Source: a virus
DNA length: 31,015 nucleotides
Strand: one strand, 5' to 3'
Virus record (IMG/VR): IMGVR_UViG_3300035633_000361
Span: 1-31,015 of that record
The translations under genes and the position numbers were made by a program. Shown here one piece after another: positions 6,531-31,015 of this stretch (its first letter is position 1; every line of letters begins with the position of its first letter). The notes below the pieces were generated by a model. That model had not been told where the DNA came from and did not search any database. It saw only the letters and a program-made list of their open reading frames with translations.

Positions 6531-8705
6531 TTATTTCCTCACATCTGCCATCGTCTTGACGAGAAGACCGTTTGCTACAGCAGTGAGTGGATTCTTTGCA
6601 CTACGGATTTCAGAAACTTCAAAAGGAAGATCATAACCCGAAAGTACAGTTTTGAATAAATTGATAAAACCTTTGGGCATACTTGTCCCGCCCGATACCA
6701 CGATTGGGATTGGATCTTCAATCTCGACGTCCACATGATCTGAAAATTCCTTGATAATCTTTTTTACGGTATAATTTATCAAAGCATCATGATAATGATA
6801 GAGCGCTTGAAGAATTATCTTTTTCTTTTTATTTTGTTCCGTTGAAGCGAGAGGATCGTTAAGATCCAATGAACCCTCCTTTACGCTCGTCACTCGATTC
6901 TGCACAACACCACAAGATTCAGCAGCATTACTATCAATCCAATCACCAGCTCTAGCGGTAGAGAACTTTAGAGCTTCAATTCCTTTATATGCAATTGCAC
7001 AATTATGAACAAAAATCCCATTATCTATAGCAAAATTGTGATATTTATCCACAGTTAAATCATAAACATCTCTATGAATATTCAATTTTTCAACTTTTAC
7101 AACTTTATGATTAAGAGGGGGTTTAGTATGTTGATTCTTAATACCCTCTTTAAAATGATTTAAATATTCTTCACCCTTCAGACCTTTATTCCAAGGAACA
7201 CATCCTTTTTTAAATGTTCCTGAATTAACTGTTTCTTTTCTGTGCAACCACGGTTTCTGCTCTGAACATTGTTTTGACAATTCATTTCTTCTTTTCTCTA
7301 TTTCTATATCATTATTCATAATTTCTTCATATTTTAACCCTTTTTTCTTCAACGACATTTTCTCTTTTATTAGACCACTTTTATCTTCAAAAATTTCATC
7401 AAATGTTTTTCCAAGTCTTTGTTCTTTTATAGTATTTCCCGATGTACTTTTCAAAACACCTTCAGATATACTTTTTGATATTTCAGCGGCTCGTTCAGTT
7501 CCGTATATTTCCTCATTCGTCTTACCCAATCTTTGTTCTTTTATAACTTTTGCTGCTGCTTTTCCACCGATACTTGATATTTCTCTATGAAATTCACAAT
7601 GTTCTTGTTTAGAAAGTTGAATTAAATTTTCGGGAGTGTTATCAATTTTATTAAAATTTTTATGGTGGATAACAAACCCTTTTTTTCTATTTATACCCAA
7701 CTCTTCTCTTGCAACCATTGAATGAATTGTTTCCCAATACCGATGTTTATTGTTATAATAAGATAAATATTCCGGCATTTCATTCCATTTCCCAACTTCA
7801 GTATATAATGGCATTAAACTATCGTTCTCTTTTAATTCACCAGCTTTAATATAATCACCATTTCTTTTCATTATTAAATGATCTTCAGTGCAATCAAAAT
7901 ATGTATCATTATCAAGATGAATTCTAACTATTTCTCTAGTTCCAGTTTTTCTCGGTGAATGTGCTAAACCGGGAACAATTTTCCCATCGTCTTTACAAGA
8001 ATAAACCCAAAATTTTTCTCCATTATAATTATCAGTTAATTCTTTTATTGTTTTTATTTCTCCATTTAACAGAGGGATTTTTGTTTCACCAGTTAAACAA
8101 TTTGCCATTCCAGCACCGAAGCTAATTCCAATACCGCTAAATTTCTCTTTTGCACATTCAGAAAAGATAATCGCCATAGCTTCATTTACAGAAGTATGAT
8201 TGATACCTAGACTGCTCAAAATCTGTCCGAATACGCGCTCGTGATATATCACAGATCTACCTTCGTCAATTGCTTCTGCTGGAACAGAATAAGAACAATA
8301 TGCATCTTTATCCTTGACATCACCAATCAAATCTTTTAACATTAAAGTCAAAACATCAATAGCATAAATTTCCTTTGGTGATATCAAACCACTTTCCATC
8401 GGTCTAGCAACTTTTTGACCAAAAATGTTTGCAAAATTAAAAGCATCAGAACCAATTATAAAAAGCTCCCCGTCATCACTCTCAACATAGCTAATATCAC
8501 TCAATTGAGATAGTGAAATTTCCTCTTTATCAATCGGTAGAAAAACATTTCGCGTTATATTAACCTTGTCTTGGTCTGACCTCGCACAGCATAAATGCAT
8601 CGTTCCAACATCAAGACCAATGCATAAAGTAGATGTCTGTTTCTTTTTCTTTGGTGTTTCTTTATCATCATCGTCGATTAGTTCATGCAAACTTCCATCA
8701 CTCAC
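6531..8705 (-). CDS. Actin-like ATPase (MreB/ParM/Alp superfamily) interrupted by an intein
   Basis: Read from GTG 8705 the precursor is 724 residues; removing the intein (residues 203-568) leaves about 358, normal for a bacterial actin. After an acidic/Lys-rich leader, LCIGLDVGTMHLCC (about 27-40) is the phosphate-1 loop, and GIGISFGAGMAN joined to CAIAYKG is phosphate 2, where the intein sits. GDWIDSNAAESCG and the adenosine motif VVSGGTSMPKGF follow, and ANGLLV closes the protein. The usual Asp of phosphate 2 appears to be Ser (ISFGAG), as I recall for some Alp proteins. The GTG lies 4 bases after the upstream stop and has GGAGG at 8714-8718; ATG codons further upstream would force a long overlap. 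Likely roles are DNA or particle positioning by filaments. Confidence 0.85.
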   Translation of the reverse strand: MSDGSLHELIDDDDKETPKKKKQTSTLCIGLDVGTMHLCCARSDQDKVNITRNVFLPIDKEEISLSQLSDISYVESDDGELFIIGSDAFNFANIFGQKVARPMESGLISPKEIYAIDVLTLMLKDLIGDVKDKDAYCSYSVPAEAIDEGRSVIYHERVFGQILSSLGINHTSVNEAMAIIFSECAKEKFSGIGISFGAGMANCLTGETKIPLLNGEIKTIKELTDNYNGEKFWVYSCKDDGKIVPGLAHSPRKTGTREIVRIHLDNDTYFDCTEDHLIMKRNGDYIKAGELKENDSLMPLYTEVGKWNEMPEYLSYYNNKHRYWETIHSMVAREELGINRKKGFVIHHKNFNKIDNTPENLIQLSKQEHCEFHREISSIGGKAAAKVIKEQRLGKTNEEIYGTERAAEISKSISEGVLKSTSGNTIKEQRLGKTFDEIFEDKSGLIKEKMSLKKKGLKYEEIMNNDIEIEKRRNELSKQCSEQKPWLHRKETVNSGTFKKGCVPWNKGLKGEEYLNHFKEGIKNQHTKPPLNHKVVKVEKLNIHRDVYDLTVDKYHNFAIDNGIFVHNCAIAYKGIEALKFSTARAGDWIDSNAAESCGVVQNRVTSVKEGSLDLNDPLASTEQNKKKKIILQALYHYHDALINYTVKKIIKEFSDHVDVEIEDPIPIVVSGGTSMPKGFINLFKTVLSGYDLPFEVSEIRSAKNPLTAVANGLLVKTMADVRK
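7002..8099 (-). other. Intein with HNH homing endonuclease, inside the actin-like protein
   Basis: The 366-codon insert starts with CLTGETKIPLLNG (block A, nucleophile Cys1) and ends DVYDLTVDKYHNFAI...GIFVHN (blocks F and G) before a Cys at extein position +1, so all splicing residues are present. Block B is DCTEDHLIM with its His. The middle carries an HNH nuclease, VIHHKNFNKIDNTPENL, with HCEFH after it, and repeated NUMOD3-like units (LGKTNEEIYG, LGKTFDEIFE) that would bind the homing site. It interrupts the actin phosphate-2 loop between Asn and Cys. The endonuclease looks intact, so it may still be mobile. Splicing has not been shown; this is from sequence blocks. Confidence 0.92.
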
Positions 8706-8709
8706 GTTT

Positions 8710-9303
8710 TCATCCTCCACGATTCTTTTTTGATAACCTTGACAATATATCTGCCGATTCATCGGCGCTATCATCTCTTTCCTCACTTCGAATTGATGAG
8801 CGCCCCTTCATAGTGGCACCTTCAACATCAACTTGAGGAATAAAAGAATCAAGCTCTTCAATATCTGGTTCGGTATTCTTCTCTCTAATCTTATCAACTG
8901 TTTGTATGCGAACTTCTCTTTCTTTAATCAATTCTGCAAGTAAATCCAATTTTCTATTTATTTGTTCCTCATTCTTGGGACTTTTATCCGGCTCACGTAC
9001 AGCAAGCTTCTCAATCATTTTTTCAATTCTATCTAGTCGCTTGTTTGTTTCTTTACGATATGATTTCAATTGGTCGTTTGGTTTATCCGGTTTTGGGTAA
9101 AAATCCTCAGATTTATATATTTTTTGTTCTCCTGTGCGACTATCAGCGACAATTTCATAATTTTCAATGCCAGCCTTTTTCAAATAAGCCGCAACAAGAG
9201 GAATGCTCATTGAGGTTATATTGATATGAACTGGACTATTTACAGGGGGCATTCCAGGTATCTCTAGAAAATGCCCCTTCTCATGAACTTTTAGTATAAT
9301 CAT
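8710..9303 (-). CDS. Coiled-coil protein coupled to the actin-like gene, possible filament partner
   Basis: A 197-residue protein of unknown family. Residues 1-60 look like a small globular domain (strand-rich, EIPGMPPVNSPVHINIT, then a helix and EIVADSRTGEQKIY). Residues 75-145 are long charged helices with heptad Leu/Ile (KRLDRIEKMIEKL, NRKLDLLAELIKE), predicting a coiled coil. The C-terminus is acidic/Ser-rich and ends in a basic SRLSKKNRGG. The tail encodes the ribosome site of the actin-like gene 4 bases downstream. In ParM/Alp systems a small adaptor is encoded beside the actin, so a partner role is a fair hypothesis, but no ParR-like DNA-binding motif is visible. AAGGG precedes its ATG. 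Confidence 0.65.
   Translation of the reverse strand: MIILKVHEKGHFLEIPGMPPVNSPVHINITSMSIPLVAAYLKKAGIENYEIVADSRTGEQKIYKSEDFYPKPDKPNDQLKSYRKETNKRLDRIEKMIEKLAVREPDKSPKNEEQINRKLDLLAELIKEREVRIQTVDKIREKNTEPDIEELDSFIPQVDVEGATMKGRSSIRSEERDDSADESADILSRLSKKNRGG
8714..8718 (-). promoter_or_regulatory. SD that fixes a GTG start for the actin-like gene
   Basis: GGAGG on the minus strand is 8 bases before GTG 8705 and is built from the last two Gly codons of the upstream coiled-coil gene, whose TGA is at 8710-8712. The arrangement couples the two proteins' translation and decides the start. Confidence 0.7.
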
Positions 9304-29017: not shown

Positions 29018-31015
29018 ATGGCAAAGAAAGTAGTGTTATCCGATAATGCGTTAACCGTAGCGCAAAGAAGATATTTTATGGAGGGAGAAGACTGGGAGGG
29101 TTGTTGTGAAAGAGTTGCGAATGTAGCATCTGCAAGCGAAATGCAAAATCGAGATTCTTTTAAAGATGGTTTTTATGATATAATTTACAACCAAGATTTT
29201 CTGCCTGGTGGTAGGATTCTTAGAAACTCTGGACGCCCAAGAGGGTCATTATTTAATTGTTATCACCTTCCCATTGGTGATTCAATTGAAGAGATCGGCC
29301 AATTCATAAAAGATGCTCTAATTCTATGGTCAGAAGGCGGGGGGGTTGGTTGTAATTTTACACCACTTCGCCCCAAAGGTGACCCCATTCTTGGCAAAGG
29401 TGGCCATTCATCTGGTCTTGTCAGTTTCATGGAAGCAGCAGATTTCGTTTCAAGAAAGATAGAGAGTGGTGGGTCACGAAGAGCGGCAGCAATTGGTCAT
29501 ATAGATGTTTCACACCCAGAAATTTTTGATTTCATTGACGCAAAAACTTTTAAATTATACAATGAGCTAAAGCAGTATTTGAAACCAGAACTTTTTGAAG
29601 AAAACCCAACGCTTGCAAAAGCAATTAAGGAAAAACTAACAAGCGATCTATCGCATTTTAACATATCAGTAACATTAAATAACGAATTTCTTGAAGCTGT
29701 TGAGAGTAACGCAGACTGGACATTCAAATTTAAACAGAAAGATTATGGAACAGTAAAGGCAAGAGATATATGGGCTAAGATCGTCAAAAACATGATTTCT
29801 TGTGCAGAACCAGGAATCATTAATTGGTCAAATTTTCAGAAGAATAATTCATATTATTTTGAACCCGTGTTGGGGACAAATCCATGTCTTACGGGTGATA
29901 CGCTCGTTGCAGTGGCAGATGGAAGAAATTATGTTCCTATTAAACAACTCGCTGAAGAAGGCAAAGATGTGCCTGTATATAGTTTGGGATTAGATAACAA
30001 AATGACTATAAAATGGGGACGTAATCCCAGACTTACGGGTAAAAAAGTTGAAGTTTGGAAATTAGTTCTGGATGATGGTTCTGTTATCAAAGCTACACCA
30101 AATCATAAATTTGTTACATTAAATGGAGATGAAGTTCAATTAAAAGATTTAAAATCGGGAGAAAGTTTAAGAATAAATAAAAAAATACGAAACTCTGAAT
30201 CAACGGGTATTAATAGTTATTGGCATTTTATTGGAAAGGATTTGCCAGAGTTGTCTTATGAACATACAATGATTTATAACTTTTTTAATTCAAATGACCC
30301 GTTTGTAAAATATTCTGGTTATGATATTCATCATAAAGATTTTGATAAATTAAATAATAATATAGAAAATTTAGAAAAGATGCTACACGAAGATCATTTA
30401 TCATTACACCATGAAAATATGTTTGGTGAAAATAACCCAATGAATCGCTTTCCAGAAAAGAATTGGTTAATAAAACAAGATTGGTCTGGAGAAAATAATG
30501 GAAGATATAAAGGCTATAATGGACAAGATTTATTTGATATAGCTGTTGATTATAGTAAAAAATCTGAAAGACGATTGACAAGAAAAGAATGGGATAATAT
30601 TTGTAGAAAAGACGGCCTTCCTGTAGATCAAGTCGGTGTAAATCAAGTTGATTATATAAAATGTACCCATGATTTGTTGAAACGCGCCGCAATTGAAGCA
30701 AATGTATATGTGTACGAATCTTCTTCTGAAATAAGATATTATAAAGAGTTTCTAAAAATAAAAGAAGAAACTGATTTGGATGTGTTTTATGATAAGGGAA
30801 CCTTTGTTAACAAAAAATGTGAAGGTTGTGGTGAATCATTTATAACACCTTGGGGGTTAAGAGAAAGATGTTTTTGTTCTGTTGTGTGTTCAAATAAATA
30901 TAAAAATAATAATTATGGTAGTTTTGAAGAGAAACAGAAAAAAACAAGAAAAGAGCAAATCAAAATATTTAACAACCTGAAATTTGAATTAAAAAGAGCA
31001 CCTTGGAAGAAAGAA
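29018..31015 (+). CDS. nrdJ: Class II ribonucleotide reductase, interrupted by an intein (3' end beyond window)
   Basis: The gene starts at ATG 29018 (AAAGGAG upstream) and stays open to the window end, 666 codons. The first 289 residues are the reductase: FLPGGRILRNSG (61-72), FNCYHLPIGDS with redox Cys81, EGGGVGCNFTPLRPKGDPI (106-124), KGGHSSGLVSFMEA (127-140), ESGGSRRAAAIGH (149-161) and VSHPEIFDFIDAK, then LSHFNISVTLNNEFLEAV. This is the B12-dependent NrdJ pattern, which works without oxygen or a second subunit. The next motif, GTNPC, is cut by an intein at residue 290; the rest of the enzyme lies outside. It supplies deoxynucleotides for phage DNA. Confidence 0.85.
   Translation, partial: MAKKVVLSDNALTVAQRRYFMEGEDWEGCCERVANVASASEMQNRDSFKDGFYDIIYNQDFLPGGRILRNSGRPRGSLFNCYHLPIGDSIEEIGQFIKDALILWSEGGGVGCNFTPLRPKGDPILGKGGHSSGLVSFMEAADFVSRKIESGGSRRAAAIGHIDVSHPEIFDFIDAKTFKLYNELKQYLKPELFEENPTLAKAIKEKLTSDLSHFNISVTLNNEFLEAVESNADWTFKFKQKDYGTVKARDIWAKIVKNMISCAEPGIINWSNFQKNNSYYFEPVLGTNPCLTGDTLVAVADGRNYVPIKQLAEEGKDVPVYSLGLDNKMTIKWGRNPRLTGKKVEVWKLVLDDGSVIKATPNHKFVTLNGDEVQLKDLKSGESLRINKKIRNSESTGINSYWHFIGKDLPELSYEHTMIYNFFNSNDPFVKYSGYDIHHKDFDKLNNNIENLEKMLHEDHLSLHHENMFGENNPMNRFPEKNWLIKQDWSGENNGRYKGYNGQDLFDIAVDYSKKSERRLTRKEWDNICRKDGLPVDQVGVNQVDYIKCTHDLLKRAAIEANVYVYESSSEIRYYKEFLKIKEETDLDVFYDKGTFVNKKCEGCGESFITPWGLRERCFCSVVCSNKYKNNNYGSFEEKQKKTRKEQIKIFNNLKFELKRAPWKKE
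29885..31015 (+). other. Intein with HNH homing endonuclease in the reductase gene (3' end missing)
   Basis: At least 377 codons. It starts CLTGDTLVAVADG (block A) right after GTNP, so it splits the NPC active-site motif of ribonucleotide reductase. Block B is KATPNHKFVTL with its His. The nuclease is YDIHHKDFDKLNNNIENL with LHEDHLSLHHENMF, followed by NUMOD3-like GENNPMNR and GENNGRYKG, a possible recognition segment (RRLTRKEWDNICRKDG) and a zinc finger CEGCGESF...CFCSVVCSNKY. The C-terminal splice blocks are past the window edge, so completeness is unproven. It is distinct in sequence from the actin intein but of the same general HNH type. Confidence 0.9.

What the first reader, a model, noticed from the sequence alone, without database searches (positions are those of the whole stretch)
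29885..31015. Second HNH intein splitting the NPC motif of a class II ribonucleotide reductase
Seen: block A Cys directly follows GTNP, so it interrupts the catalytic motif; the insert has an HNH nuclease and a C-x2-C/C-x-C-x3-C zinc finger. Two inteins in 31 kb, both in catalytic motifs, suggest this phage group is actively colonised by homing elements.
Basis: partly seen in the sequence, partly recalled or inferred. Interest (0 to 1): 0.7.

Follow-up and report, generated by a model that had tools for sequence, protein, structure and literature searches.

The report
Phage intein in ribonucleotide reductase active site
A virus gene for the DNA-building-block enzyme ribonucleotide reductase is interrupted, right before its catalytic cysteine, by a self-splicing mobile protein element (an intein) with a DNA-cutting HNH domain; this is a new example of a known kind, and its closest cousins mostly lack a histidine that textbook inteins use to finish splicing.

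Summary
ORF 29018-31015(+) is the first 289 residues of a class II (B12-type) ribonucleotide reductase, cut after GTNP by an intein that starts at TGT 29885. Block A, block B (T-x-x-H), an HNH motif and a four-Cys finger are present. The record ends inside the intein, so the C-terminal splice blocks are not in hand.

Relatives fill the gap. Six distinct close reductases (60-69% identical) have an uninterrupted NPCGE. L012 and L025 carry homologous HNH/finger inteins at the same junction with the rest of the reductase downstream. A search with the intein finds about 100 loci, essentially all in reductase genes at this site (phages, huge phages, some bacteria, Lokiarchaeota). It is a new member of a known, horizontally mobile kind.

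Two corrections. First, the expected HN|C ending is unlikely: of 65 distinct complete relatives, 59 lack the penultimate His and 18 end in Gln; such endings are known to splice (Chilo iridescent virus intein). Second, the phage group is not broadly colonised: seven nearest-relative records (1.05 Mb) show no intein, and the window's other intein is absent from the five of them in which its host gene was found.

The parts
29018..29884 (+). N-extein: residues 1-289 of a class II (NrdJ-type) ribonucleotide reductase, ending GTNP
   Evidence: Pfam RNR domains; NrdJ_Z best; 60-69% identity to intact relatives L003-L009; GGAG ribosome-binding-like site just upstream
29885..31015 (+). Intein, first 377 residues; truncated by the end of the record (complete finger-bearing relatives are mostly about 435-500 aa)
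   Evidence: TIGR01445; alignment with complete inteins at the same site; predicted Hint N-half
29885..29944 (+). Block A and start of splicing domain: CLTGDTLVAVADGRNYVPIK, nucleophile Cys1
   Evidence: Cys1 invariant in all aligned relatives
30077..30118 (+). Block B: GSVIKATPNHKFVT with T-x-x-H (intein Thr71, His74)
   Evidence: H74 invariant, T71 nearly so
30314..30409 (+). HNH endonuclease motif, H149-H150 ... N162 ... H171/H175 intact
   Evidence: Pfam HNH_3; H149, H150, N162 and H175 invariant and H171 nearly so in a 32-sequence alignment
30818..30889 (+). Four-cysteine finger C-x2-C-x15-C-x3-C (FCS-type), probable DNA-binding module
   Evidence: Conserved in over half of the distinct relatives; relative L025 scores over the Pfam zf-FCS cut-off, the window's own copy does not

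Best explanation
The insert is a class 1 intein with a nested HNH homing endonuclease, lodged at the NP|C junction of a phage class II ribonucleotide reductase so that the catalytic cysteine is the +1 splice residue. Expected course: Cys1 makes an N-S acyl shift after Pro-1 helped by block B T-x-x-H; the acyl group moves to the catalytic Cys; the intein's last residue (most likely Asn, possibly Gln, probably without a penultimate His) cyclises and releases it; an S-N shift restores the NPCGE loop. Until then the reductase lacks its active-site loop. At DNA level the HNH domain, guided by its FCS-type finger, would cut intein-less alleles at the conserved codons so that repair copies the intein in. 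Shown here: site, splice blocks A and B, HNH residues, finger, Hint fold (predicted), empty sites in close relatives, homologous inteins at the same site, decoupled histories. Inferred: the unseen C-terminal half, actual splicing, actual DNA cutting.
For: TIGR01445 and HNH_3 hits. Cys1, H74, H149, H150 and N162 invariant, T71 nearly so. Same junction in complete genes L012, L025 and LR756501. Empty NPCGE in L003-L009. +1 Cys aligns with T. maritima NrdJ Cys322. The complete relative L025 is predicted as a Hint domain at both ends: Z 20.2, 1.6 A over 139 residues against the Mtu RecA intein. The reading frame stays open through 377 codons. Intein and extein histories are poorly coupled: window vs L036 intein 46%, extein 26%; window vs L025 intein 37%, extein 57%.
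Against: The C-terminal blocks of this copy are not in any held sequence. In the intein tree the window copy falls, weakly (80/81), with inteins of its own reductase clade (L012, L025), so inheritance with losses in the relatives is not excluded for this particular copy. No expression or splicing data.
Confidence: 0.93

Rival explanations
1. The intein is an ancestral resident of this reductase clade, inherited vertically and lost cleanly in the relatives, rather than a recent arrival by homing.
For: The window copy groups weakly with the inteins of clade-mates L012 and L025 (80/81); holding window and L025 together is not rejected (p-AU 0.114).
Against: Window and L025 inteins are 2.7 times as far apart as their exteins (2.05 vs 0.76), whereas several closely similar pairs of carriers have ratios near 1 (some of those ratios rest on the same trees and are not independent proof of vertical descent); all sampled nearest reductases (L003-L006, L008, L009) are empty and L003 is the sister of the window in the extein tree, so several exact deletions would be needed.
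Confidence: 0.25
2. Degenerate or dead intein: the gene is a pseudogene and the reductase is not made.
For: The copy is cut by the record's end; reductases of some Campylobacter phages are described as decaying around inteins (PMC3653736).
Against: Continuous frame, intact Cys1, T-x-x-H and HNH residues; extein 60-69% identical to intact relatives over its whole length.
Confidence: 0.05
3. The insert is half of a split intein or a trans-splicing arrangement, with the C-terminal half elsewhere.
For: Only the N-terminal part is seen; split reductase inteins exist (NrdJ-1, PDB 8ubs matches the profile).
Against: Frame is open to the very edge and past the HNH and finger; most relatives examined that reach the junction are continuous, though L041 and L091 have the reductase in separate frames.
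Confidence: 0.03

Closest known systems
Reductase large-subunit (RIR1) inteins; allele groups RIR1-l / RIR1-i shared by bacteria, phages and iridoviruses (PMC1635734)
   Same: Reductase large-subunit host gene; phage and cellular carriers
   Different: Exact allele letter could not be assigned here: the reference set of insertion sites is not held
Chilo iridescent virus reductase intein (C-terminal Gln, splices natively; PMC4031507)
   Same: Reductase intein in a virus with atypical block G, as in 18 of 65 relatives of the window copy
   Different: Sequence not compared here; the window copy's own last residue is unknown
Inteins in nrdA of Ackermannviridae phages (LIMEstone1, pertopsoe, Vibrio phage YC) and Synechococcus phage S-CBWM1
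   Same: Same Nx|C junction, same ADGRN block A signature, HNH-region similarity (27-31% identity over about 220-250 aa)
   Different: Class I reductases (adjacent nrdB), no four-Cys finger in the aligned region, canonical HN|C ending
HNH intein in the reductase of the 735-kb uncultured phage LR756501
   Same: Same NP|C junction, 40-41% identical intein although the extein is only 25% identical
   Different: Shorter (312 aa), no finger, ends KN|C
NrdJ-1 split intein (PDB 8ubs)
   Same: Hint fold; reductase intein
   Different: Split and without endonuclease (established knowledge)

Membership tests
Intein, class 1 | N-terminal Cys/Ser nucleophile in block A | tested here: met
   Cys1 at 29885, TIGR01445 43.8 bits over cut-off
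Intein, class 1 | Block B T-x-x-H | tested here: met
   T71-P-N-H74, aligned with relatives
Intein, class 1 | Blocks F and G with terminal Asn/Gln and +1 Cys/Ser/Thr | not testable with these tools
   Record ends first; met in complete relatives at the same site
Intein, class 1 | Hint fold | tested here: met
   N-half of window copy: 4lx3 TMt 0.85, 1.6 A; complete relative L025: Z 20.2; predicted models, not solved
Intein, class 1 | In-frame insertion with empty homologous sites | tested here: met
   Uninterrupted NPCGE in L003-L009
HNH homing endonuclease | H-H ... N ... H motif intact | tested here: met
   Pfam HNH_3 over cut-off; residues invariant or nearly so
HNH homing endonuclease | Cuts the intein-less allele | not testable with these tools
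   Needs a cleavage assay
Class II (NrdJ) ribonucleotide reductase | NrdJ-type sequence; no radical-transfer Tyr pair; no NrdB partner | tested here: met
   NrdJ_Z 195 bits vs class I 98, though below the equivalog cut-off because only the first half is present; relatives read VTVY, not YY; PF00268 absent from 11 records, which may be fragments
FCS-type zinc finger | C-x2-C ... C-x3-C with FCS | tested here: inconclusive
   Pattern conserved; Pfam zf-FCS reaches its cut-off in L025 but is not reported for the window copy

The most novel reading that the evidence does not exclude
The window intein belongs to a distinct clade of HNH/FCS-finger inteins specialised on the reductase catalytic-cysteine codon, spread across phages, huge phages, bacteria and Lokiarchaeota, in which loss of the penultimate His is the rule, C-terminal Gln is common and a long F-G hairpin is standard, so that the clade as a whole finishes splicing by other means (for example the retained block F His).
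Probability: 0.4. Interest if true: 0.45.

Novelty: new member of a known kind. Interest (0 to 1): 0.28.

Why it matters
By itself it adds one more phage reductase intein. The useful part is the comparison set: about 100 loci, 65 distinct complete inteins at one codon with 59 lacking the penultimate His and 18 ending in Gln, against about 5% of functional inteins with an alternate penultimate residue in the literature (PMC4031507). That gives a natural series for testing how splicing step 3 works without His, and matched empty and filled sites for testing HNH intein homing across reductase classes.

Tried and rejected
Intein alone as a single-sequence query in viral contigs found nothing; an alignment query was needed. 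Exact 30-mers to extend the record to the right: none. The idea that the window intein is simply closest to huge-phage inteins (BLAST) is not upheld by the tree, where it sits on a long branch near L012/L025/L097 with weak support. The idea that ADGR-type inteins also sit outside reductases: L063 and L110 show reductase domains in Pfam; L084/L093 have none at E 0.001 but read as a divergent reductase by eye. The ADGRN signature's strength is partly built in, since the search patterns used part of it; the C-terminal residues were not part of the patterns. SP-beta, for the allele letter: record not held. A zinc-finger match for the window copy itself: none reported in Pfam up to E 10.

Full report
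What is there. The window is a complete public virus record of 31,015 bases, a linear fragment. Its last gene, 29018-31015 on the + strand, starts with ATG behind a GGAG motif and runs off the right edge. Residues 1-289 are a ribonucleotide reductase large subunit (Pfam lgN and lgC) of the NrdJ type (NrdJ_Z 195 bits, class I 98 bits). After GTNP the sequence turns into an intein at TGT 29885: TIGR01445 begins at residue 290, block B T-x-x-H follows, then an HNH_3 domain and a C-x2-C-x15-C-x3-C finger. The record ends after 377 intein residues.

Class and site. An empty-site relative, L003, aligns with T. maritima NrdJ so that the Cys of NPCGE falls on Cys322, the thiyl-radical cysteine from established knowledge. 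Relatives read VTVYRDG near the C-terminus, not the class I Tyr-Tyr pair, and no class I small subunit occurs in eleven related records (the records may be fragments). So the intein interrupts a class II reductase immediately before its catalytic cysteine, which serves as the +1 splice residue.

What the missing half should look like. L003-L009 (60-69% identical over the N-extein) read straight through NPCGE. L012 (43%) and L025 (57%) carry homologous inteins at the same junction and continue into the reductase. L012 and L025 share HNH and finger with the window. The complete L025 intein is predicted as a Hint domain formed from both ends (pLDDT 92-98 there; Z 20.2 to the Mtu RecA intein), with HNH and finger inserted. 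The window model shows the N-half of the same fold.

A reductase-bound family. An alignment query found 80 virus loci (best of 137) and 31 genome loci. Of the 100 loci L025-L124, a reductase profile hits 96, Pfam supports two more and two read as divergent reductase by eye. Nearly all insert at NP|C; a few bacterial ones (L117, L120, L121, L123) sit one codon later, NPC|S. Hosts include class I NrdA of Ackermannviridae and S-CBWM1, dimeric class II enzymes, and class II enzymes with RNR_Alpha / RNR-II insertion domains in Lokiarchaeota genome bins. Reductase inteins shared by bacteria, phages and iridoviruses are already described (PMC1635734), as are inteins in phage reductases (PMC3653736). 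This is therefore a new member of a known kind.

An atypical ending. Among 65 distinct complete inteins of the family at this site, 59 lack the penultimate His and 18 end in Gln instead of Asn. The block F His is kept in 61 (60 by script, plus L098 misread by the pattern), and the stretch from it to the end is 17-28 residues (median 25) against 12-13 in the other inteins seen here (volactin intein, L010, L013, L014; read). In the L025 model this stretch is a long beta hairpin. A review puts alternate penultimate residues at about 5% of functional inteins and reports that the Chilo iridescent virus reductase intein splices with its native Gln (PMC4031507); mycobacteriophage inteins also often lack the His (PMC5050341). 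Redundancy was removed only by identical N-termini, so related rows still count more than once.

Mobility. The extein tree puts the window with L003-L009 and L025 (SH-aLRT 99); all but the window and L025 are empty. Window and L025 inteins are 2.05 apart against 0.76 for their exteins, and intein and extein distances correlate weakly over 1,225 pairs (Spearman 0.29). The window intein is 46% identical to one in L036, whose extein is only 26% identical. Yet the intein tree weakly groups the window copy with L012 and L025 (80/81), so for this copy old residence with losses is not excluded. The general picture is turnover; the direction for this copy is likely gain, not proven.

The claim about the phage group. 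Two inteins lie in the 31-kb window, none in seven nearest-relative records totalling 1.05 Mb (two of them, G005 and G006, share the identical reductase locus), and two each in the more distant G008-G010. The other window intein, in a volactin-like actin gene, is missing from the five relatives in which that gene was found. This particular virus is intein-rich; its group is not.

Mechanism. Splicing as in class 1 inteins: Cys1 attack, transfer to the catalytic Cys, terminal Asn/Gln cyclisation, S-N shift. Blocks A and B are seen; F, G and activity are inferred from relatives. Homing by the HNH domain is inferred from the intact motif and the filled/empty pattern.

Noticed in passing
window 7002-8099 (-), within gene 6531-8786 (-): Complete 366-aa HNH intein in a volactin-like actin gene, at GAGMAN|C, canonical HN|C end; the same gene is uninterrupted in records G002, G003, G005, G006 and G007. 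The site looks like a phosphate-binding loop of the actin fold, untested.
   Followed up: partly
L010 and L011, 6748-7866: A different intein three residues upstream (NVT|CTNPCGE) in related reductases, so two neighbouring insertion points are used in this clade.
   Followed up: partly
L013, L014, L015, L016: Closely related phage reductases with a 125-aa mini-intein, a 320-aa intein, two inteins, and an empty site at the same NP|C codon: a small natural gain/loss series.
   Followed up: partly
L117, L120, L121, L123: Inteins of the same family one codon downstream (NPC|S, +1 Ser) in bacterial B12 reductases, as if the insertion point had slid by one codon.
   Followed up: no
L105-L112, L115, L119, L122: The family is present in many Lokiarchaeota genome bins, in class II reductases; whether chromosomal or of viral origin was not checked.
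   Followed up: no
L024 (LR756508.1 143896-152318): One ORF of a 484-kb phage appears to hold three inteins (1387 aa; portal-like context by eye).
   Followed up: no
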